DNA from: a virus
DNA: 47,468 bases
IMG/VR virus record: IMGVR_UViG_3300025424_000438
Location: 1 to 47,468 of that record
Reading direction: 5' to 3' (one strand)
Below the pieces are notes generated by a model. It was not told where the DNA came from. It made no database searches and saw only the letters and a program-made list of their open reading frames with translations. Both the position numbers and the translations under genes were made by a program. Below, piece after piece: positions 385-47,468 of this stretch (positions are counted from its first letter, which is position 1; every line of letters begins with the position of its first letter).

Positions 385-2874
385 ATGAGCAGCGCAACAA
401 CAATTATCGACCAATTAGAAATAATCATTGACAACATGCTGTTGGAACACAAGACTGGACTTATCCTATCTGGTGCAACAGGCATCGGTAAAACCAGTTT
501 CATCAAACAAATGGGTCAACTATTTGGGTTGCCTGTTTTCCTAGTTGAAGCACCACATGTTACTGCTGAACATCTAATCAATATTCCGTTCCTTGTAATC
601 AAACCAACCGGTCAAGAAAAAAAGAACAAAGATGAATTTGTCAACCAACTGGAAAAAGACAACACATATTCAGTTGTATTGAGCAAAAGTTATTTGGCAA
701 CTGAACTTAATACTGCTCGTCGACTTTCTGATGCACAATTGCTACAACAAATTTACAAGAGTTCTCGCACCTTTCAAGAAATTTGGCAGGAAATGGGTGG
801 AGATCAAAATACCATTCCTCGTGAAATACTCAAAGTACGTGCCAAATATCGTGGCATCCTATTCCTAGATGAATATTTCCGAAACACTGATCCCACTGTA
901 AGAAATATTTTGCGTGGTATTTTGAATGGCAAGATCGGTAATGACCGAGTTCCCAAAGGTGTTTATGTCATTTATGCTAGTAATTTTTCTGATGTAGGCA
1001 ACACTGTTGAGCCACCTGCACTAAATGCAGACTTTAAAAAATTGGACTTTAAGCCACCTTCCAAAGATGAATTCTTCAATTACATGATTGCCAAATTTGA
1101 AAAAGACACCGACAACAAATTGAAGCCTGAAGTAATTGAAGCATTTAAAAAAGAAGTCAAAGAAGAACACATAAGTTATGATGATTTGGAAACTGAAATC
1201 CGAACCAGTCCACGTCGTTGGGAACAATTACTTCTCTACGTAAATGCCAGTATACCTGTAAAATCAGAAGCCGATGCAGAACGGCTATTAGCAAATGTTC
1301 GCGCAAATTTCCAACATGAAACCACAATAAGCAGTTTACACAAATTAGTTGAAGGCATTGTTAGAAAGATTATTGCCAAATCCACCCCTCAATTTGCAAA
1401 TGCCACTGCACTTTCAAATGAAGAATGGCGTGATATTCTATATCACCAAATTGAGATCAAAATCAAAGTGGGTGAAGCTCGTTCCTATATTCCTGCGATA
1501 CAAGGTATGCCAGGAATTGGTAAAACTGCGGCAATATATAGTGTTACTGAAAGACTCAATATGAGACTGGTATACCTTGATTGTAGTTTATTAGATGTTG
1601 ATGAAATTACTGGTATCCCAATTCCCAACAAGGGAACCGGTGAAGAAGAAGGACAGATGAGCACTGATTTCGGTGAACCCAGCTTATACCAAGAGATCAT
1701 GAAACAAATACGAGAAGCAGATGCTGACTTCTTTGCCAATCCAGAAATCAGCAAGGAAGAAAAAGCTGCCTATAAAAAGAAAAAGTACAAATATGTTATT
1801 TTCTTTGACGAGTTAAACCGGTGTAAAACATCAGGTGTATTCAACAGCTTGCGACGTGTTATTCTAGAAAAAAGCTTTACTGATCATCTACGTCTTCCCA
1901 AGGATTCAATTATCGTTGCTGCACTAAACCCCTATGATCGTGGTACACAACAATTGACGAACCACGTGCGTGACAGCATGGACTTGATTGATACAGCACC
2001 AAGTTGGTCAACAACAATTCAATATATCAAGTCAATCAGTGACAGTGGACAATATGCTGAATACCGACCTGAAGCAAAGTCTGCCGCACTCAGTTTGTTG
2101 AGTGGATTTGTTTCAACGTTTGCTATTAAACGTAATGTGGATAACATTCGTGAAAATGCACGCAACTATTGGATCAAGGTTGGATCAGATATGGTTTATA
2201 TCAGTCCACGTGAATATACTACCATGTATTTGGATTTGATTGCTGCATTAGAACGTGGCTTTAGAAAGCAGACACAAAATTCCAAGGAAAATATCGATAG
2301 ATTGACTAAGATTTCTCAGGAAACTATGATGCGAACTATCAGCATGGTGTTTGAAAAGCACCAAGTTAACAGTCCTGAATGGGTTCGCGGTTTTGAAAAT
2401 TGGGTAGCTCGTATCTTCCAAGAACAAATTACCAAGAAGCGTGATGCATCCGTAACACTTAAAGACGTGTTTGATCACGTTTTGGAAAATCCCTTGGATC
2501 ATTTGAAAGACGATCCTGAATTTGTGAACTATGTCAACAATAAATTCAGTGTTGCCAAGTTTAGTGAAGATCTAGACAATTATTTGGATCATTTGTGCAA
2601 AAAAGAAAAAGAGGTTGTTGATCTACTATTGAAGAAAACACATAAGAAAAAAGAATTCCGTGATGCTGCGATCATTGAGCTGGATGAATTTACAGATAAA
2701 ATAAATTATCTAATTGATGAAATCTTAATTGCTGCCCGAGCAAATAACTTGAGCGGCGATATTATTGATCAAATGAAATCAACTATACAAAATAAAGTTG
2801 CAAGCTTGCCGGGTCTAGACTGGAGCAAGTATGGCGATGAAGTTCAAGAATACTTTAGCAAGTTGTTTACCTGA
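385..2874 (+). CDS. MoxR-like tandem AAA+ ATPase
   Basis: A protein of 829 residues with two AAA+ modules. The first has Walker A GATGIGKT at about 30-37 and Walker B ILFLDE near 157-162. The second has Walker A GMPGIGKT near 374-381 and Walker B IFFDE near 471-475. The C-terminal third is helical and charged. The next gene overlaps by one base (TGATG) and encodes a von Willebrand A protein. That arrangement is the MoxR/vWA pairing, in which the ATPase and vWA protein act together as a chaperone or metal-insertion machine (RavA/ViaA, NorQ/NorD). Fusing two AAA+ domains in one chain is less usual. The substrate is unknown. The ATG follows AAAGAG and a late-promoter-like box. Confidence 0.85.
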   Translation: MSSATTIIDQLEIIIDNMLLEHKTGLILSGATGIGKTSFIKQMGQLFGLPVFLVEAPHVTAEHLINIPFLVIKPTGQEKKNKDEFVNQLEKDNTYSVVLSKSYLATELNTARRLSDAQLLQQIYKSSRTFQEIWQEMGGDQNTIPREILKVRAKYRGILFLDEYFRNTDPTVRNILRGILNGKIGNDRVPKGVYVIYASNFSDVGNTVEPPALNADFKKLDFKPPSKDEFFNYMIAKFEKDTDNKLKPEVIEAFKKEVKEEHISYDDLETEIRTSPRRWEQLLLYVNASIPVKSEADAERLLANVRANFQHETTISSLHKLVEGIVRKIIAKSTPQFANATALSNEEWRDILYHQIEIKIKVGEARSYIPAIQGMPGIGKTAAIYSVTERLNMRLVYLDCSLLDVDEITGIPIPNKGTGEEEGQMSTDFGEPSLYQEIMKQIREADADFFANPEISKEEKAAYKKKKYKYVIFFDELNRCKTSGVFNSLRRVILEKSFTDHLRLPKDSIIVAALNPYDRGTQQLTNHVRDSMDLIDTAPSWSTTIQYIKSISDSGQYAEYRPEAKSAALSLLSGFVSTFAIKRNVDNIRENARNYWIKVGSDMVYISPREYTTMYLDLIAALERGFRKQTQNSKENIDRLTKISQETMMRTISMVFEKHQVNSPEWVRGFENWVARIFQEQITKKRDASVTLKDVFDHVLENPLDHLKDDPEFVNYVNNKFSVAKFSEDLDNYLDHLCKKEKEVVDLLLKKTHKKKEFRDAAIIELDEFTDKINYLIDEILIAARANNLSGDIIDQMKSTIQNKVASLPGLDWSKYGDEVQEYFSKLFT

Positions 2875-4724
2875 TGTCCAGATTAATCAAACTTTTAGAA
2901 ATGGGATTGGATATGACACGGGCCGAACTGGGCCAAGTCAAATTCCGCTCATCCACAATCTCAGACCCACATATACGAATGTTGGTGAATGAAGTCGCCA
3001 AAAGGACTGGAATACCTACAGCCGCTCTAGATGCCAAACTATCTGAATTTATTCAAAAAATTAATGATATGAAACAATACAGTCAATTGCTTTATGAAAC
3101 CGCAGCTCGCAATGCTGTGGAAAATGCAGCATTTGATCTAATTGGTACAGATGATTTTTCCAAAGAAAAGTTTGATATCAATGTTTTTGTCAAACTATGC
3201 AACATAATCCAACAGGAGCATGAAGCATTCTTTCCACTTAGAGCACCCGGTGATACAAATTATATCTTTTCTATTACACCAATCATTGTTCCTTCAACCA
3301 AAGAAGTTTTTAAAAAATACAATGATATTGAAACTGCTGCTGCAACGGAAGGCGGTGATTTTATTTTCAATCGCGACTTTATGCAAAAGTTAATTAATTG
3401 GGCAACCATGGAGCATGCCAAACCAACAGGCCTAAAATATGTTTCAAACGGTGGTGTGATTCCTGACAGCTATTGTTATATTGAATTTCTCATTATGCAT
3501 GAATTACTGCATTATGCTTATGGTGACATGGCTAGAAGTAAAAAATTAAAACAGTACGCGCATTCTACTCACAATATGGCCATGGATTTTAGAATCAATT
3601 ATCTGTTGGTTAAGAGTGGATATAGTCAATTGCCAATTGGGTTGTTTAGTGATTATATCAACTATGACCGACAAACCAGCTATGAAGACATGGTACGTAT
3701 TGTTCATGAAGAACTTAAAAAATTACCCAAACCACTACAGGATACCTATCAAAAGATTGCTGACCAAATGGATGATCACAGTCAAAGCGGTCGTCCAACG
3801 CCGGGGTCATCTGACGCAGAAGAATCAAATCCCGGTAACAATCCAGATGATCCCACTCCAACTGAAGAAGAAATTCAAAAATCAATTGAAGACAAGTTGA
3901 GCAAAAAACAAGAAGAGACTGGTAAAGAAAATGGAGTCGACAGCAAATTTGATCCAAACAGTCGAGGTAATGGTAGTCCTGGTACAGGCGGATCACTCGA
4001 TGACATGACAGATATCAGTGATTTGATTAAGCAGCAAAAGCCCAAATACAATTGGCGTGCTCTAATGAAACTGCTAATTCAATCAGCCACCAGCCATGAT
4101 GAGCTTAGTTATGCTAAACCACATCGTCGATCAGCAACTGGTATTACTGTAGCCGCCGCCCTGGGAGCGGGGGCAATCAAACCAGGCAATAAAACGCTGC
4201 AAGAACCCACTCTAGATCTAGTCTTAGTAATCGATACTAGTGGATCCATGGGACATCACATTCCATTGGTTCTAGCTGAAGCTAAAAGTTTATTAAAAGC
4301 CGCTGGCAAATCCAATCGATCAATCATGGTGGTTTTCTTTGCTGGTGAAGATCGCTATTTCAAAGTTAATATTGGCAAGAATTGTTATGCAGAAGTAACG
4401 ACCGTTGATGAATTCCTAGACAAAGACATGCCCAAAGACGCTGAAACTGGAGCAGACAATGTGTTTAACAAAGCTGGGTCTGGTGGAACTGAATTTACTA
4501 AAAAAATAGCTAATAACTTGGATCTATTAGCCGACAAGAAATATAACATCATTATATTCAGTGACGGTGATTTGTTGTCAGGTGAAAACTTTATCAACCT
4601 GTCGAACTTGTGGCTCAAACATAAAAAGTCTAACAACGTGTGTTTTATTGCTGATTGCAAAGAAACTTGGGTTAATGCTTGTAAAGCAATTGGACAAATG
4701 CCAGCCACCTGGACCCATATATAA
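2874..4724 (+). CDS. vWA protein with HExxH metallopeptidase-like domain
   Basis: A protein of 616 residues. The N-terminal half has an HELLH motif at about residues 209-213 within a helical region, as in the predicted metallopeptidase domain that precedes vWA-like domains (DUF2201 type). A low-complexity linker rich in Pro, Asp, Glu and Gly spans roughly 300-380. The C-terminal vWA domain carries the MIDAS sequence DTSGS at about 454-458. It starts inside the stop of the AAA+ gene, so the two are probably translationally coupled and form one complex. Whether the HELLH site is catalytic or structural cannot be seen. A cytoplasmic location is likely because there is no signal peptide or membrane segment. 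Confidence 0.8.
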   Translation: MSRLIKLLEMGLDMTRAELGQVKFRSSTISDPHIRMLVNEVAKRTGIPTAALDAKLSEFIQKINDMKQYSQLLYETAARNAVENAAFDLIGTDDFSKEKFDINVFVKLCNIIQQEHEAFFPLRAPGDTNYIFSITPIIVPSTKEVFKKYNDIETAAATEGGDFIFNRDFMQKLINWATMEHAKPTGLKYVSNGGVIPDSYCYIEFLIMHELLHYAYGDMARSKKLKQYAHSTHNMAMDFRINYLLVKSGYSQLPIGLFSDYINYDRQTSYEDMVRIVHEELKKLPKPLQDTYQKIADQMDDHSQSGRPTPGSSDAEESNPGNNPDDPTPTEEEIQKSIEDKLSKKQEETGKENGVDSKFDPNSRGNGSPGTGGSLDDMTDISDLIKQQKPKYNWRALMKLLIQSATSHDELSYAKPHRRSATGITVAAALGAGAIKPGNKTLQEPTLDLVLVIDTSGSMGHHIPLVLAEAKSLLKAAGKSNRSIMVVFFAGEDRYFKVNIGKNCYAEVTTVDEFLDKDMPKDAETGADNVFNKAGSGGTEFTKKIANNLDLLADKKYNIIIFSDGDLLSGENFINLSNLWLKHKKSNNVCFIADCKETWVNACKAIGQMPATWTHI

Positions 4725-31808: not shown

Positions 31809-32573
31809 ATGACTATTTATTCTGCAAAAAACCCACCACTTGATTATTATGTATATGCTTATTTAAGAAGTAAAGATTCTGCAACAGCAAATGCAGGAAC
31901 TCCATATTATATTGGTAAAGGAAAGGGTAAAAGAGCATGGAATAAAGAGCATAACGTGCATGTTCCAACTGATAATAATTTGATCGTTATCTTAGAATCT
32001 AATTTAACTGAATTGGGTGCATTTGCTTTAGAACGTAGGATGATACACTGGTATGGAAGAAAAAATTTAGGTACAGGTATATTAATGAATAAAACAGATG
32101 GTGGAGAAGGAGTATTTAGTCCATCAATTGAAGACAGAATGAAAAAATCGCAAAATCTTAAGCAATTTTATGAAGATCCAAATGAAAGACTAAAAGCGTC
32201 AATTCGAACTAAGAATGCACACTTAAATGACCCAACTCTTTCTCTTCGAAAAGCTCATCCCGGAGAATCAAATGGAATGTGGGGAAAAACTCATACTGAA
32301 GAAGTGAAACAAGCACAAAGTATTAGGGCCAAAGGAAACTCTTCAACACGTGGTTTGATGCGAATTTATAATACAATGACGTTAGAAGTCAAAACAATAC
32401 CATGTTTAGATCCAATACCTCCCGGATGGAAACGAGGTTTGCGGCCTTCTAATTCGAAAAATAAAATTAAACGTATAGCAATTTATAATCCAGAATTAAA
32501 TCTTAGAAAAACTATTGCAATTGATGAAGAAATTCCTACTGGCTGGTTACTTGGGTACAAAATCAAAAAATAA
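31809..32573 (+). CDS. GIY-YIG homing endonuclease
   Basis: A protein of 254 residues. The N-terminal GIY-YIG catalytic domain reads YYVYAYLR...[15 protein letters not shown], with a conserved glutamate region [10 protein letters not shown]. The motif [16 protein letters not shown] is a NUMOD3-type DNA-binding repeat. The C-terminal part ([13 protein letters not shown]...IPPGWKRG and [12 protein letters not shown]...IPTGWLLG) is a duplicated DNA-binding-like unit. Such free-standing enzymes spread between related phages by cutting genomes that lack them. The gene is alone on the plus strand between minus-strand genes, consistent with insertion, and its end overlaps the DUF2828 gene by 11 bases. 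Confidence 0.9.
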
Positions 32574-33999
32574 TTTTTGAATATCTTTCTGAGCTAATGG
32601 TTTCCCACATCACATCTGCGGGCGTAAATGTCTTACTTGCCAATATTGACTTCAACAAGCTAGGACTAAATCCAGAAACCAATGCCGTTCCGTTTTGATC
32701 ATATGTCACTGGCACATTCCCTTGTCCTGCTGAACGAGCATTCAAATTCCAAAAAATAATATTGGGCAATGAATAATTGGCCTGTTCAAACATATTCCTA
32801 GCTAGATCAAACACGCCGATTGATTTACCATCTCGGCATGCAGCATTGTATTCTTGGTCTGAAAAAATGATTAGTGATTTAGGCATCTGATCAGCTGGGA
32901 TTTTATGATTAACTGCCAATTGCAAAATTGCTCTAAAAGCAGATTCAATATTCGTACTACCAGCCCAATCTGCATTAGACATGCTATTATATTTGGTCAT
33001 CAAATCACCGGCTGGAAGTTTCGCAATCTTACTATCAGTTGTGAATGTCAAATACAGACCAGCAAATGGACCCTGTTGCTTGGTCGCTAGATAGAGGCCA
33101 AGGCTAACTGCAACATCCATACAAGTAAGATTTGGATTATCGCCCACTGAGCATGTCATGCTTCCGCTCACATCAACCAGTGGTAGGATAAAATCATCAC
33201 CCAAATAATTGGGAAGTGCTTCCCATTGTGCATTGGCAACAACTCGATCACCCCCTTGCTTCAAACTCTTGATGATGTCATAGGGATAAACTGCACTTGC
33301 GTTGACTTTCGCAGTACCAGCTTGCAAGCTGGCTCGGTAAGCAGCATATCGTTCACCATCACGCTTTGTGAAAGCCTTTTGATAACGAGCGGCCGCAACA
33401 GAAGGAACATGACTATAATTAATAGCCGCCCAATCTTTGGCTGACATCTTTTGTTCAACAGTGTTGCTTGCACTAACGATCAATTGGCGATATGACTTGG
33501 GAGTCAAATTCATATACTTACGAAGCGCATTAGCAACTGGTCCTTTGCGAGGACTCCACTTGCCTGCCAGACCATCTGATTGACTCAAAGCCAGTGCAAA
33601 CATTGAATAGGCCATGTTTTGAAAACGACTGGTTTGGAAAATTAGCAAATCATCCCAACGACCATAGGTTGGTACAAACGGAATCAACTTTTCCAATTGT
33701 TCCGGGTGAGTCTGTTCAAGCCAAAGTAATCCTTGTCGAAACAATTCTCGCTCTCCCGAACCACCACGAACATCTCGTGCCCAAAAAAGAATACGAGCTG
33801 CATTTTCTGGATCAGCCTGCCAGGCACGTTCCAGAGCTGCTTGAATTGGTTTGCCACGAGCAGCACCAACGAAGAAAAAGAAATCAACCAGTGGATCCAA
33901 GCTACTGTTTAGAGTAGCCATACCATTGGCAGTCAGTGATTGATTGTTACTGGCTTCTGGAACCAGACGAGTTTCAAGCGCGGCGGCAAATGCAGACAT
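32563..33999 (-). CDS. DUF2828/Ro60-like protein (helical repeats plus vWA)
   Basis: A protein of 478 residues. The N-terminal part is helical, with the DUF2828 landmarks [18 protein letters not shown] and [12 protein letters not shown]. The C-terminal vWA domain has the MIDAS motif DVSGSM, a conserved [12 protein letters not shown] and LIIFSDQEY. This order, helical repeats followed by a vWA domain, is the architecture of the Ro60/TROVE RNA-binding proteins, which hold Y RNAs and misfolded RNAs; the link to Ro60 is an inference from architecture. Directly upstream on the same strand lies an array of three homologous hairpin RNAs. AAGGAA precedes the ATG. No promoter is seen between array and gene, so they may share one transcript. 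Confidence 0.82.
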
Positions 34000-34110
34000 A
34001 GTAGTTTCCTTTTTGTTTGTTGAAAGATGTCAACCATTTCTAGTTGTCATCCAGGGGGCGTTTTTAGTCGTCTTCACCACTCATTTTTTCTAAAGTGAGA
34101 AACGTATTAC

Positions 34111-34165
34111 AGGCCGAACTTTTTTTCATTAGCATTGAAAATTAAGTAGTTGCGGAACTCGGCCT
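34111..34165 (-). ncRNA. Hairpin RNA unit 1 of a three-unit array
   Basis: The outer stem AGGCCGA/TCGGCCT (7 bp) encloses, on the minus strand, a conserved 5'-side bulge GTTCCGCAACT and an inner stem TTTTCA-N7-TGAAAA. It has the same length (55 nt) and the same bulge as unit 2. The outer stem differs from unit 2 by paired, compensating changes, which is evidence for RNA structure. Confidence 0.75.
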
Positions 34166-34182
34166 TTTGAAATTTATAAAAC

Positions 34183-34237
34183 AGGACCAACTTGGTTTCA
34201 TTGGACGTGAAATTTGGTTAGTTGCGGAACTGGTCCT
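34183..34237 (-). ncRNA. Hairpin RNA unit 2 of a three-unit array
   Basis: The outer stem AGGACCA/TGGTCCT (7 bp), the same bulge GTTCCGCAACT and an inner stem TTTCA-N7-TGAAA. Outer stem and loop sequences differ from unit 1 while pairing is kept. Seventeen bases separate it from unit 1. Confidence 0.75.
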
Positions 34238-34255
34238 TCTAAAAATGTACTAAGC

Positions 34256-34312
34256 GGAAGAGCTAACGTTTTTCATCCAAATTGAAATGTTTTTAGTTGC
34301 TGTATGTCTTCC
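34256..34312 (-). ncRNA. Hairpin RNA unit 3 of a three-unit array (promoter-proximal)
   Basis: The outer stem GGAAGA/TCTTCC, a bulge with the shared core GCAACT, an additional CTAA/TTAG pairing and the inner stem TTTCA-N7-TGAAA. It is the most diverged unit. It begins about 6 nt after the late box, so the transcript would start almost at its first base. Confidence 0.7.
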
Positions 34313-34318
34313 TTGTCT

Positions 34319-34349
34319 TATTTATGCAAAATCCCGATTGGAATGTCAA
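34319..34349 (-). promoter_or_regulatory. Dual promoter TTGACA-N17-CATAAATA of the hairpin array
   Basis: -35 TTGACA (34344-34349) and, exactly 17 nt on, CATAAATA (34319-34326). The second box serves both as -10 (CATAAA) and as the late octamer. The same design is found at the tRNA, tmRNA and three-way-junction RNA. Confidence 0.8.
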
Positions 34350-35767: not shown

Positions 35768-35923
35768 TAGGCCAGGTGAGATTCGAACTCACGCTAGCTC
35801 CGTTAATTGACGAAAATAAACCAATGAGTCTATTTTCGAATGGGGTTCCCTATTATTTCTAATAGGGGGAAGATCGAACTTCCTAATATGAGCGGAGTGC
35901 CTTAACCACTTGGCTACTGGCCA
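35768..35923 (-). tRNA. tRNA(CAU), interrupted by an 83-nt insert in the anticodon loop
   Basis: Minus strand. Acceptor TGGCCAG/CTGGCCT (six pairs plus a U1-U72 mismatch), T8, A9, D arm GCC/GGC, anticodon stem CTCCG/CGGAG, five-base variable loop, T arm GTGAG-TTCGAAT-CTCAC and A73. Removing 83 nt inside the anticodon loop (about 35805-35887) leaves a regular 73-nt class I tRNA. For most junctions the loop reads CTCATAA, giving anticodon CAU (Met or, with lysidine, Ile for AUA codons). CCA is not encoded, but a CCA-adding enzyme and TilS are. The insert holds three hairpins: 35811-35838, 35848-35867 (GAAA loop in RNA) and 35868-35883. It is too short for a normal group I intron. Confidence 0.85.
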
Positions 35924-37136: not shown

Positions 37137-37558
37137 TTTTTGAATCCAGTCTTATAACCAATTTTAAAAACCAACTTCAATGCCAAATAGCCCGCGATCA
37201 TAATCGCCGCCATCTTAGCTTGTAGTTGATTGCCTGAACACCAAACCAAGACCAGCGGGAGCACCCATACAAAAAATGTAGTTGATGGATCCCAATTCCA
37301 TGTGTGAAGAGTTACATAAGTCAATGTGGAATTTTTATATTTTTGGAAATTTTCCAATTGATTATTTCGAATCCAACCGGTGGTTACATTATACAAGATA
37401 ACTACCAAACAAACTGAAAATGCTAACAGCGCAACCCAACACCAACTTAAGACGCTAGCGATATCCTGCAATATAGGAAAGTCTCGACCAAATGAAATTG
37501 AGAGAGCCAATATACAACTAAAAACATAGTGGCCGATTGAAGGAACTCGTTTAACCAT
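37133..37558 (-). CDS. Multi-pass membrane protein
   Basis: A protein of 141 residues with hydrophobic helices at about 9-25, 35-57, 93-110 and 115-131, and a basic C-terminus (KIGYKTGFKK). The start overlaps the tilS stop by eight bases (ATGGTTAA) and the end overlaps the next membrane gene. The two membrane proteins and the GT2 enzyme form a coupled three-gene unit. No family is recognised. Confidence 0.65.
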   Translation of the reverse strand: MVKRVPSIGHYVFSCILALSISFGRDFPILQDIASVLSWCWVALLAFSVCLVVILYNVTTGWIRNNQLENFQKYKNSTLTYVTLHTWNWDPSTTFFVWVLPLVLVWCSGNQLQAKMAAIMIAGYLALKLVFKIGYKTGFKK

Positions 37559-38492
37559 TTTCCCAACTCATCATTAATTTATTGCCAACTTTGTGCAATG
37601 TTAGATTTTCTACTCGAATTTCATTCCTAGCATCTGGCCCGGCAGTCAACAATTCACGGCTGAAGTGTTCAATTTGTCCAGTACTAAAACTTGTAATATT
37701 ATAATGATCAAAGATATGCAAAATCAAATTCTTAATTCTGATCTGTGACCAAGTCTTGATTATTTTCAAATCCAAACTGTTTTGTGTAATTTCTGCAGAT
37801 CGCCAATCCAATTGTGCTAATTCACGCGTCAATTCAAATGTTTCACTCAACAAGTCAATTGATTTGTTGATGTTGATATCAGCAATTGCATATCTTGATT
37901 GAATCAGTGGCCACATGACATTGCGAATCCAATTTCTATCAAATCGATTGGATGCATTACTGGGATCAGTAATATGTTCAATGCCATTGATTAAAGCATA
38001 GGATTCCAGTTGTTCACGTGTTTGATTGAGCAATGGTCTGACAACTTGAATTGCAGGATCCAACCAACATGCGGTAGTGGTTGTCATACCTTTGAGACCT
38101 TTGATGCCAGATCCTCGCATCAATTTCATAAAAAACGTTTCAATACGATCATTTAAATGATGAGCTAGCACAATAGTATCAGCGCCCAGGCTGCACAGAG
38201 CTTGGTAGCGAGCTGAACGAGCAGCAAATTCCAAATTGTTACCTGCCACGTCAACGCGAATCGTTTGTTGTTCAAATCCCAGCTTGGTAGCTTCTCGTTC
38301 AACAAAGTCGCCCCAATTTCGACTGTCAGGATTCAATTGATGATCAACATAAACAACTTGCCAAGTTTTGTCAGCTGTTTTTAATTTAGCCAGGGAGTGC
38401 ATCAGCACCATGCTATCCAGACCACCACTGACACCAATGACAATATTGTGACTATTTGCAAATAGTTGATCAAATGTTTTTTGAGTAATCAT
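37551..38492 (-). CDS. tilS: tRNA(Ile)-lysidine synthase
   Basis: A protein of 313 residues. The PP-loop SGGLDS (22-27) binds ATP. HHLNDRIETFFMKLMRGSGIKGLKGM and DPSNASNRFDRNWIRNVMWPLI are the TilS signatures; the usual HHxDD is HHLND here. The enzyme turns C34 of tRNA(Ile)(CAU) into lysidine, which changes decoding from AUG to AUA. The only tRNA in the window, 1.6 kb away, has anticodon CAU, so enzyme and substrate may travel together. A short C-terminal domain replaces the longer one of bacterial TilS. Its start lies 2 nt after the previous stop. Confidence 0.92.
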   Translation of the reverse strand: MITQKTFDQLFANSHNIVIGVSGGLDSMVLMHSLAKLKTADKTWQVVYVDHQLNPDSRNWGDFVEREATKLGFEQQTIRVDVAGNNLEFAARSARYQALCSLGADTIVLAHHLNDRIETFFMKLMRGSGIKGLKGMTTTTACWLDPAIQVVRPLLNQTREQLESYALINGIEHITDPSNASNRFDRNWIRNVMWPLIQSRYAIADININKSIDLLSETFELTRELAQLDWRSAEITQNSLDLKIIKTWSQIRIKNLILHIFDHYNITSFSTGQIEHFSRELLTAGPDARNEIRVENLTLHKVGNKLMMSWENG

Positions 38493-44959: not shown

Positions 44960-45219
44960 AATGTCAGTTGATTCTGTTATTAGGCTCAACTGACAAATCC
45001 CTCGAAAAGTCGCTTACGCGGCCATTTCCATGAATGCATTATCGTTAGCATTTCTTACGTTTGGACTAATTGCAGGTCGTTCCTTACCTAAAGCCTAAAT
45101 ATCATCTCTATTACCTGTCGATAACTAGTCACCCACATATGAAAGTGGGAGAAGTTGGTGTAGGTGGAGGAATTCGCATCCTCGTCCAGTCTAACATTGA
45201 ATCTACGTCAAGCAGCTTC
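44960..45219 (-). ncRNA. ssrA: Circularly permuted tmRNA
   Basis: Minus strand. The acceptor piece comes first: GGAC, T arm GAGGA-TGCGAAT-TCCTC, acceptor strand CACCTAC and ACCA ending at 45156. After a 19-nt spacer the coding piece starts at 45136 with GTGGGTG, which pairs with CACCTAC over 7 bp (one G-U). It is followed by ATCGACAGG, the conserved tmRNA TCGAC(R)GG element. The tag frame, ending ANDNAFMEMAA-stop (45049-45014), follows TTAGTCC; the exact resume codon is uncertain. A 9-bp hairpin (44963-44971 with 44986-44994) and a terminator close the gene. The 3'-half-before-5'-half order defines the permuted, two-piece form. Confidence 0.9.
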
Positions 45220-45224
45220 AAAGA

Positions 45225-45255
45225 TATTTATGCATTCTTTTTAGAGAATTGTCAA
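45225..45255 (-). promoter_or_regulatory. Dual promoter TTGACA-N17-CATAAATA of the tmRNA
   Basis: TTGACA (45250-45255) and CATAAATA (45225-45232), exactly 17 nt apart, directly upstream of the tmRNA acceptor piece. Confidence 0.82.
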
Positions 45256-45257
45256 AT

Positions 45258-45329
45258 GAAAAGCCACCGACATCTCAACCAAATCTTTTGGAAATGGGTA
45301 CTGGATTCACAGCTGAGTCGGTGACTTCT
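45258..45329 (-). ncRNA. Three-way-junction small RNA of unknown function
   Basis: On the minus strand an 11-bp closing stem (AAGTCACCGAC with GTCGGTGGCTT, 45317-45327 and 45261-45271) encloses two hairpins: CTG/CAG with a 6-nt loop, and CCAAA-AGA-TTTGG. A TTTTCATTT tract follows. It has its own dual promoter and lies just before the tmRNA promoter. No frame in it looks coding. I know no RNA family with this shape. Confidence 0.65.
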
Positions 45330-46334: not shown

Positions 46335-46443
46335 GCTTGTTACTTCTTACGAGCATAATGCTGTTGTATCTTTAGATCAACAGATAACGGCGGGTTAAAT
46401 AAAAACAAATTGCAAATTGTTTGATAATTAAATATAAATGAAT

Positions 46444-47468
46444 ATGAAAGTAACCTATTTAGTAAAACATAATCGTGATTACACAGACGAGCTAACAAAA
46501 GCTCGTCTGGTTGCTGAATGGGCTATTCAAAATAAATTTCAAACCAGTTCCAAACACGTAAAACATATTGGACTTAAATCGGCTATTGCTTGCCAAATAT
46601 TGCGTAAATATGGCAGAAATAAAAACTGTAAGTCAATCACTTCTGTTAAATTGACTATACCTGGTGCTAATGGAAATATACAAATAACCAAAAACGGCGA
46701 AATTAAAATCACTTGTCTAAATGAGCTATTCGTACCCTGGTTTGATTTAACAAACATTACTAAAATATGTCAAATAGAAGCTGATAACGAAAAATATTAT
46801 ATTACTTGTGAGATTGATGAAGAAATACCAAATAATCCAGAATCATATATTGGTGTTGATTTGAATTCAACAGAACATTTTGCTGTGATATCAAGTGGCA
46901 ATAAGATAATCAAACGCGGTAAGCGTCTACGTCATACCAAAGAAGCTGCTATTGCACATCGAGCTAGATTGCAGAGAAAGAAACATTATAAACAGATCAA
47001 AAGAAACAAAAACAAGGAACGTCGTCGTGTACGTGATCAATTACATAAAATAACACGCGAACTAGTTGATCTTGCCAAATCAACAGGACAAGGCATTAGA
47101 ATAGAAAATTTGACGGGAATACGTAAGAAAACAACAAAGAAATATCGAACAAAAAGCAATCGTACCACAAATAACTGGAATTATAGTTTGTTTAGGCAAA
47201 TGCTGGAATACAAAGCCAAGATATGTGGTGTAGTTGTTGAAGCTATTAATCCATTCAACACAAGTAAAACTTGTTCTAGATGTGGCGCAATAGGTCTTCG
47301 AGAACACAAAAAATTTGAATGTCTGGATTGTGGACATCGAGATCATGCCGATTCAAATGCAGCTTTCAATATTGCATTGGGATCACTGATCACTCCTACT
47401 AGTAAAGCGCCTAGTAGTGATGGCTGCTGTGAATCAGCCACGTCAGCTCTGTCTGTGAAAGCCGGACA
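46444..47468 (+). CDS. tnpB: TnpB (IS200/IS605 OrfB-type RNA-guided nuclease), runs off the window
   Basis: An open frame of at least 341 codons with no stop before the right edge. The RuvC-like triad is visible: Asp in YIGVDLN, Glu in IRIENL and Asp in HADSNAAFNIA. A zinc ribbon (TCSRCG...FECLDCG) lies between the last two. The basic bridge-helix region (RARLQRKKHYKQIKRNKNKERRR) is present. TnpB is the RNA-guided DNA nuclease of IS605-type elements and the ancestor of Cas12. No TnpA transposase is in view. The start follows a TATAAATG box by 3 nt, without a ribosome-binding site. Confidence 0.9.
   Translation, partial: MKVTYLVKHNRDYTDELTKARLVAEWAIQNKFQTSSKHVKHIGLKSAIACQILRKYGRNKNCKSITSVKLTIPGANGNIQITKNGEIKITCLNELFVPWFDLTNITKICQIEADNEKYYITCEIDEEIPNNPESYIGVDLNSTEHFAVISSGNKIIKRGKRLRHTKEAAIAHRARLQRKKHYKQIKRNKNKERRRVRDQLHKITRELVDLAKSTGQGIRIENLTGIRKKTTKKYRTKSNRTTNNWNYSLFRQMLEYKAKICGVVVEAINPFNTSKTCSRCGAIGLREHKKFECLDCGHRDHADSNAAFNIALGSLITPTSKAPSSDGCCESATSALSVKAG
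47396..47440 (+). ncRNA. Stem-loops in the tnpB 3' end, candidate guide RNA scaffold
   Basis: Two hairpins, CTACTAG-N8-CTAGTAG (47396-47417) and TGGCTG-N8-CAGCCA (47421-47440), lie in the last visible part of tnpB. In IS605 elements the omega RNA overlaps the 3' end of tnpB. The end of the element is outside the window. Confidence 0.4.

What the first reader, a model, noticed from the sequence alone, without database searches (positions are those of the whole stretch)
32563..34349. Ro60-like gene with its own array of three homologous hairpin RNAs
Seen: three 55-57 nt units (34111-34165, 34183-34237, 34256-34312) share a 7-nt-loop inner hairpin and the bulge (GTTCC)GCAACT. Their outer stems differ in sequence but keep pairing (GGCCGA/TCGGCC, GGACCA/TGGTCC, GGAAGA/TCTTCC). 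That is covariation, the signature of a functional RNA. They lie on the same strand as, and directly upstream of, a DUF2828 protein with the helical-repeat-plus-vWA order of Ro60. Established: bacterial Ro homologues (Rsr) are often encoded next to Y RNAs that they bind. Inference: this is a phage Ro/Y-RNA-like particle with multiple small RNAs made from one promoter.
Basis: partly seen in the sequence, partly recalled or inferred. Interest (0 to 1): 0.92.

Follow-up and report, generated by a model that had tools for sequence, protein, structure and literature searches.

The report
Phage Ro-like protein with tRNA-mimic RNAs
Many bacterial viruses carry a relative of the human Ro60 protein next to a row of small RNAs that share one handle and each display a different piece of a transfer RNA (an anticodon loop or a rearranged tRNA), probably an RNA-protein machine that meddles with the cell's tRNA enzymes during infection.

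Summary
Similar units lie within 1 kb upstream of the DUF2828 gene in 52 of 59 non-redundant relatives: 106 units against 0.4 expected. In the reverse scan of viral contigs, all 28 non-redundant hits to one unit's 5' half that had the pairing strand also had DUF2828; the 20 without it lacked DUF2828. The DUF2828 model's four best PDB matches are all Ro60/TROVE.

New here: the shared stem and [U/A]C[A/C]GCAA motif form a constant handle, and the inserts are tRNA parts. Short inserts, as in the window, mimic anticodon stem-loops: 7-nt loop with U33 and R37 in 35 of 105, 1.35 expected. Long inserts carry T-arms (108 of 182, 2.2 expected) or whole permuted tRNAs (22, 0.04 expected). Eight unpermuted tRNAs carry the handle in the anticodon loop.

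Y RNAs with one permuted-tRNA domain (YrlA) were already known in bacteria and some phages. Multi-unit libraries, anticodon mimics and the unpermuted form appear new. RNA binding, expression and function are untested.

The parts
32563..33999 (-). Ro60-like protein (Pfam DUF2828 + DUF7788; PHROG 850 'RNA-binding protein'), helical part followed by vWA-like part with DVSGSM (MIDAS) motif
   Evidence: Pfam/PHROG hits; AlphaFold model pLDDT 78, pTM 0.74; Foldseek top four PDB hits all TROVE/Ro60, E 2.2e-9 to 4.4e-5
34111..34165 (-). Y-like RNA unit 3 (gene-proximal)
   Evidence: Held-out covariance model 42.6 bits, E 4.4e-7; fold -14.5 kcal/mol, z -2.64
34129..34135 (-). 7-nt loop of unit 3, AUGCUAA: anticodon-loop-like (U33, GCU, A37, A38)
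   Evidence: Read from sequence; loop statistics
34183..34237 (-). Y-like RNA unit 2
   Evidence: Held-out covariance model 39.5 bits, E 2.1e-6
34201..34207 (-). 7-nt loop of unit 2, CGUCCAA (G at position 33); in the 95%-identical relative L003 the otherwise identical unit has CUGCUAA
   Evidence: Alignment
34256..34312 (-). Y-like RNA unit 1 (promoter-proximal, core variant CAUACAGCAA)
   Evidence: Held-out covariance model 20.1 bits, E 0.033; identical copy in L003
34276..34282 (-). 7-nt loop of unit 1, AUUUGGA: U33, UUG, G37
   Evidence: Read from sequence
34321..34349 (-). Promoter-like site: TTGACA (34349-34344), 17 nt, CATAAA (34326-34321)
   Evidence: Read from sequence; the stricter scan does not list it because its -10 does not end in T

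Best explanation
The locus encodes a phage version of the bacterial Ro60 (Rsr)-Y RNA particle. The DUF2828 protein is a Ro60-fold ring. Each unit is a separate small RNA made of a constant handle (6-8 bp outer stem, [U/A]C[A/C]GCAA motif on the 5' side, UGU after the stem), which is the likely protein-binding site, and a variable insert that displays a piece of tRNA: an anticodon stem-loop (the window's three units), an anticodon-less permuted tRNA, or both. Shown by computation: gene-RNA linkage, paired handle, tRNA-like inserts, Ro60-like fold. Inferred: the protein binds the handle, and the RNAs act in trans as tRNA look-alikes tethered to the ring. The function I think most likely (about 0.35 on its own) is to engage enzymes that recognise tRNA, above all host anticodon nucleases or the phage's own tRNA-repair enzymes, so that translation survives during infection.
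For: Linkage: 52 of 59 non-redundant loci, 106 units against 0.4 in shuffles; reverse scan 28/0/0/20. Units sit at the DUF2828 locus in FelixO1, A511 and mycobacteriophage DuncansLeg when the whole genomes are scanned. Ro60 fold. Inner hairpin covaries although it was not selected on pairing: 5 of 5 pairs change on both sides. Anticodon-loop features 35 of 105 against 1.35; T-arms 108 of 182 against 2.2 and permuted tRNAs 22 against 0.04; unpermuted tRNAs carrying the handle 8 against 0. Permuted and unpermuted forms put the handle at the same place on the tRNA, so the 3D shape seems to be what is kept. In trans rather than only in cis: units lie downstream of the gene in FelixO1 and DuncansLeg. 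Literature: in Listeria phage CKA15 the homologue (CKA15_055) is in purified virions and strongly transcribed non-coding regions lie within 2 kb upstream (PMC12282133). PARIS AriB cleaves tRNA-Lys(UUU), Thr(UGU) and Asn(GUU), and phage T5 tRNAs for these block it (PMC12409363); UGU and UUU are the commonest and joint second-commonest triplets among the short mimics (5 and 4 loops).
Against: No binding, transcript or phenotype was measured here. The phage handle does not match the Ro-binding part of the Rfam YrlA model; sub-threshold YrlA hits rest mainly on the tRNA-like part. Window unit 2 lacks U33. About two thirds of short inserts do not meet the anticodon-loop criteria. Some DUF2828 phages (Vibrio XZ1, Sinorhizobium phiN3, Erwinia pEa_SNUABM_47, Xanthomonas XaC1) showed no convincing unit near the gene. 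The most transcribed CKA15 region corresponds to a ROOL RNA in the related phage A511, not to Y-like units.
Confidence: 0.68

Rival explanations
1. Same particle, different job: a Rsr-Y RNA-PNPase-like machine for tRNA or RNA quality control or degradation, in which the tRNA-like inserts recruit host tRNA enzymes or nucleases or gate the ring, not decoys.
For: D. radiodurans Rsr and Y RNA specialise PNPase for structured RNA (described in PMC7790460); Ro60 fold; T-arm modules common.
Against: Does not by itself explain several units with different anticodon-like triplets in one array, or loops that differ between near-identical phages.
Confidence: 0.27
2. Cis-acting leader: the hairpins are operator sites by which the DUF2828 protein controls its own mRNA.
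For: In the window and most relatives the units lie between a promoter and the start codon.
Against: Units lie downstream of the gene in FelixO1 and DuncansLeg and about 10 kb away in Cronobacter S13. Permuted or complete tRNAs with CCA ends are not needed for an operator.
Confidence: 0.1
3. Permuted and interrupted tRNA genes: the handle is an intron-like element removed by nuclease and ligase to give functional phage tRNAs.
For: Unpermuted forms have intact acceptor, T-arm and NCCA ends; RNA ligases lie near some loci.
Against: The commonest class (short inserts) has no D-arm, T-arm or acceptor, so could never yield a tRNA. Anticodon stems are often incomplete in long inserts.
Confidence: 0.08
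4. The units are ordinary terminators or attenuators, or a chance repeat.
For: Single units fold only modestly better than shuffles.
Against: No U-tract terminators found; enrichment, swap control and held-out model E-values.
Confidence: 0.01

Closest known systems
YrlA (Rfam RF02553), bacterial Y RNA that mimics tRNA, with Rsr (Chen et al. 2014, RNA 20:1715, not readable here; Salmonella rsr-yrlBA-rtcBA, PMC7790460)
   Same: Ro-fold protein gene next to small RNAs; outer stem plus permuted tRNA-like module whose anticodon end joins the stem; sub-threshold YrlA hits fall inside phage units, some over the full model length in Enterococcus and other phages.
   Different: Handle motif not recognised by the YrlA model in most hits; none reaches the gathering score; many units per locus with different inserts; anticodon-stem-loop-only units and unpermuted tRNA-handle fusions.
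Phage 'Ro-like RNA binding protein' / PHROG 850 / ROT-TROVE proteins of jumbo phages (PMC7824862; mycobacteriophage annotations)
   Same: Same protein family; a 'tRNA-like partner' is mentioned for cellular organisms in PMC7824862.
   Different: The RNA partners' sequence, arrays and modular tRNA parts are not described in the papers I could read.
CKA15_055 and non-coding RNAs of Listeria phage CKA15 (PMC12282133)
   Same: Homologous locus; authors propose Rsr plus Y RNAs.
   Different: They give no RNA motif; their most transcribed RNA corresponds in the related phage A511 to ROOL, whereas three handle-bearing units lie directly upstream of the gene.
Phage-encoded tRNAs that defeat anticodon nucleases (T5 against PARIS, PMC12409363)
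   Same: Phage RNA presenting Lys(UUU)/Thr(UGU)/Asn(GUU) anticodon loops.
   Different: Those are functional tRNAs; these are fragments or rearranged tRNAs on a protein-binding handle.

Membership tests
Ro60/TROVE (Rsr) protein | Ro60 fold: helical-repeat ring plus vWA-like domain over the full length | tested here: met
   Foldseek top four PDB hits TROVE/Ro60, 517-554 columns, E 2.2e-9 to 4.4e-5, TM 0.50-0.56; next hit 9.3e-3
Ro60/TROVE (Rsr) protein | Sequence match to the Pfam TROVE model or to solved Ro60 | tested here: not met
   Pfam gives DUF2828/DUF7788 only; profile search of PDB sequences finds TROVE only at E 0.63
Ro60/TROVE (Rsr) protein | Binds Y RNA and 3' ends of misfolded RNA | not testable with these tools
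   Needs biochemistry
Y RNA / YrlA | Encoded beside a Ro/Rsr gene | tested here: met
Y RNA / YrlA | Conserved outer stem with an asymmetric internal loop and a distal effector module | tested here: met
   33 distinct paired stems with constant core; model R1
Y RNA / YrlA | Reaches the Rfam RF02553 gathering score | tested here: not met
   Window: none; best phage hit 47.8 bits against 69
Y RNA / YrlA | Permuted tRNA-like effector module | tested here: met
   22 strict cases in related phages, 0.04 expected; the window's own units have anticodon-loop-like inserts instead
Y RNA / YrlA | Bound by the Ro protein in cells | not testable with these tools
   Needs pull-down
DUF2828 / PHROG 850 | Profile match over the whole protein | tested here: met
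   PHROG 850 E 9.5e-143, residues 1-474 of 478
Anticodon stem-loop mimic (window units) | 5-bp stem, 7-nt loop, U33, purine 37 | tested here: inconclusive
   Units 1 and 3 meet all; unit 2 has G33, while its copy in L003 has U33

The most novel reading that the evidence does not exclude
Phages of many host phyla carry a Ro60-type ring that displays an interchangeable library of tRNA parts (anticodon loops of chosen specificity and anticodon-less permuted tRNAs), used as decoys against anticodon nucleases and perhaps carried in the virion so that it acts at the start of infection.
Probability: 0.3. Interest if true: 0.93.

Novelty: new variant of a known kind. Interest (0 to 1): 0.8.

Why it matters
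The purpose of the tRNA mimicry in bacterial Y RNAs, and of Ro60 itself, is an open question. Here nature has run the experiment many times: one constant handle with dozens of different tRNA parts, including minimal anticodon loops whose triplets can be read off. That makes the question testable in laboratory phages (FelixO1, A511, mycobacteriophage DuncansLeg, Cronobacter S13). It also points to a possible new class of RNA-based counter-defence against tRNA-cleaving immunity, and explains odd 'tRNAs' of 110-120 nt in phage annotations.

Tried and rejected
DNA-level similarity of the array in named phages found nothing real, because only stem pairing and a short core are kept. Single-sequence folding was not informative enough. 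An all-insert count of anticodon-like hairpins is contaminated by T-loops (TTCGAAT), so only the short-insert count and the position-restricted count are used. Genome-wide Rfam YrlA hits in named phages are weak, and the control genomes also ring below the cut-off. The bacterial genome scan gave eight contigs, several with units; they look like phage contigs in metagenome bins, though I did not test that. Key papers (Chen 2014, Sim and Wolin 2018 and 2020) are not held, so what they say about phages is taken from papers that cite them. No link of the window proteins to known defence systems beyond marginal hits.

Full report
WHAT IS THERE. The window is a fragment of a large phage genome (T4-type topoisomerase and rIIA genes; virus record). 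On the - strand lies a 478-aa protein (32563-33999) matching Pfam DUF2828 and DUF7788 and PHROG 850 'RNA-binding protein'. Each has an outer stem of its own sequence, the motif GUUCCGCAACU (units 2, 3) or CAUACAGCAACU (unit 1) on the 5' side, and an inner hairpin UUUCA-7 nt-UGAAA.

MORE THAN CHANCE. Eighty related viral loci were fetched; 59 are non-redundant. In the 1 kb upstream of the gene the core motif is 13 times denser than elsewhere in the same loci, and 106 cores have a perfect stem of at least 6 bp, against 0.4 in dinucleotide shuffles; 52 of 59 loci have at least one. Because that search selects for pairing, I used a swap control: the stem's complement is found in its own downstream DNA for 75.2% of anchors but in other loci's DNA for 4.8%; 33 different stems are paired. 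In the reverse direction, scanning 2.9 million viral contigs with only the 16-nt 5' half of a common unit gave, after removing redundancy, 28 places with both the complement and a DUF2828 gene, 0 with only one of the two, and 20 with neither. A second unit type gave 29 with both, 15 with the complement only, 3 with the gene only and 7 with neither. A covariance model (29 units; window relatives and isolated phages held out) finds the window's units with E 4.4e-7, 2.1e-6 and 0.033. Over 329 kb of FelixO1, A511, DuncansLeg and part of S13 its best hits lie at the DUF2828 locus or, in S13, in clusters up to about 10 kb from it. The inner hairpin, which was not used for selection, covaries: all 5 pairs change on both sides. 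The score for the whole structure is 0.49 against at most 0.17 for slid versions, but the outer stem adds to that score and was selected for pairing.

THE PROTEIN. By sequence it is not linked to TROVE (best PDB profile hit E 0.63). The AlphaFold model (pLDDT 78, pTM 0.74) has as its four best PDB matches, all full length, a TROVE domain (9kop, E 2.2e-9), human Ro60 (9nen, 1.1e-5) and two older Ro structures (2i91, 1yvr); the next hit is at 9e-3. Giant viruses encode relatives.

WHAT THE INSERTS ARE. The handle is constant; the insert is not. Of 317 distinct inserts, 182 are at least 55 nt long. Of these, 108 contain a T-arm (2.2 expected) and 22 satisfy a strict test for a circularly permuted tRNA: T-arm, 7-bp acceptor, loop, complementary acceptor strand, D-arm (0.04 expected). 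These have the architecture of YrlA, and sub-threshold Rfam YrlA hits fall on them. Short inserts, the window's type, form hairpins with 7-nt loops in 46 of 105 non-redundant cases (8.8 expected), with U33 in 37 (2.3) and U33 plus purine 37 in 35 (1.35). Loops include CUUGUAA (anticodon UGU), CUUUUAA (UUU), CUCAUAA (CAU), CUGCUAA (GCU), CUGUAAA (GUA) and CUGAAAA (GAA), that is, loops of anticodon stem-loop form. In long inserts an anticodon-like loop sits at the right distance before the T-arm in 20 of 81 (2.8 expected). Eight cases show the opposite topology: an ordinary, unpermuted tRNA with 7-bp acceptor and T-arm (seven ending in NCCA), whose anticodon loop is replaced by the handle closed into a hairpin (0 in shuffles). 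Cronobacter phage S13 has two such places (annotated as a 121-nt tRNA-Ser and a 113-nt 'tRNA-OTHER'; one passes the strict test); Aeromonas phages Ah1 and LAh_8 have one each.

THE WINDOW'S UNITS. Loops are AUUUGGA (U33, UUG), CGUCCAA (G33) and AUGCUAA (U33, GCU). In the relative L003 (95% protein identity) unit 1 is identical, unit 2 differs only at three loop positions (CUGCUAA), and unit 3 has CUCAUAA. Over the few comparable pairs, loops differ at 14% of positions and the rest at 3.7% (small sample). In L003 a TnpB-type insertion separates unit 1 from unit 2.

HOW IT PROBABLY WORKS. Shown by computation: linkage, paired handle, tRNA-like inserts, Ro60-like fold, promoter enrichment ahead of arrays (27 of 51 loci against 9.3%). 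Inferred: the ring binds the handle and displays the insert. Action in trans is favoured over a mere leader element because units lie downstream of the gene in FelixO1 and DuncansLeg. For Listeria phage CKA15 the homologous protein was found in purified virions, and strongly transcribed non-coding regions lie within 2 kb upstream; the authors suggested Y RNAs without giving a motif (PMC12282133). I add that in the related A511 the region matching the most transcribed one is a ROOL RNA (RF03087, E 3e-16, below the gathering score), while three handle-bearing units sit directly upstream of the gene in a stretch conserved in 53 Listeria phage records. The preferred function, engagement or decoying of anticodon nucleases or tRNA-repair enzymes, rests on the anticodon-loop design, the variety of triplets, nearby RNA ligases in some phages, and the precedent that T5 tRNAs for Lys, Thr and Asn block PARIS (PMC12409363). 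It is not shown.

KNOWN OR NEW. Ro-like proteins in phages, and Y RNAs with a tRNA-like domain in bacteria and mycobacteriophages, are known (PMC12282133 and PMC7765460, citing Chen 2014 and Sim and Wolin 2018, which I could not read). I found no description of multi-unit arrays with exchangeable tRNA parts, anticodon-loop-only Y-like RNAs, or unpermuted tRNAs carrying the handle. Limits: the library is open-access only; the key Y RNA papers were not readable; nothing was measured at the bench; about two thirds of short inserts do not meet the anticodon-loop criteria and remain unclassified.

Noticed in passing
window 35768-35923 (-): A tRNA whose anticodon loop (CUCAU...AA, CAU-type) holds an insert of about 84 nt folding into three hairpins, the first T-arm-like; too short for a group I intron (fold -58 kcal/mol, z -6.07). 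No CAGCAA handle.
   Followed up: partly
window 37551-38492 (-): Phage-encoded TilS (tRNA-Ile lysidine synthetase; TIGR02432 162.6 bits against cut-off 93.6), about 2 kb from the CAU-type interrupted tRNA: a possible enzyme-substrate pair.
   Followed up: partly
window 44962-45266 (-): Permuted tmRNA (RF04321, 88.2 bits; also alpha_tmRNA) in the same phage.
   Followed up: no
window 46438-47466 (+); L003 about 2360-3700: TnpB-type RNA-guided nuclease at the window end; in L003 what reads as a TnpB-bearing insertion sits inside the unit array between units 1 and 2.
   Followed up: partly
L082:2465-3016 (A511): ROOL RNA homologue (RF03087, 87.5 bits, below gathering 99.1, E 3e-16) that corresponds in position to the most transcribed 'CKA15_059-061' region of Listeria phage CKA15 (PMC12282133).
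   Followed up: partly
L085:5878-6280 (Cronobacter phage S13): Two unpermuted CCA-ended tRNA bodies with a handle hairpin in the anticodon loop, head to tail, followed by a permuted unit; annotated as tRNA-Ser and tRNA-OTHER.
   Followed up: yes
L329, unit at 771 nt upstream of the gene: A tRNA-like body in normal orientation nested inside the handle, a third way of joining the two.
   Followed up: no
BFVD models A0A481Z9J2, A0A481YYB8, E3T4S5: DUF2828/DUF7788 relatives in Pithovirus, Marseillevirus and Cafeteria roenbergensis virus; whether they have RNA partners is unknown.
   Followed up: no
L090:3190-3860 (Enterococcus phage vB_OCPT_Ben): Four units, each preceded by a similar repeated block ending in a GTTCC...GGAAC-type hairpin and ATAAAGAA; may be a per-unit promoter or processing element.
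   Followed up: no
window 34026-34051 (-): A further hairpin GATGACAAC-TAGAAATG-GTTGACATC between the array and the ribosome-binding site; perfectly paired in L003.
   Followed up: no
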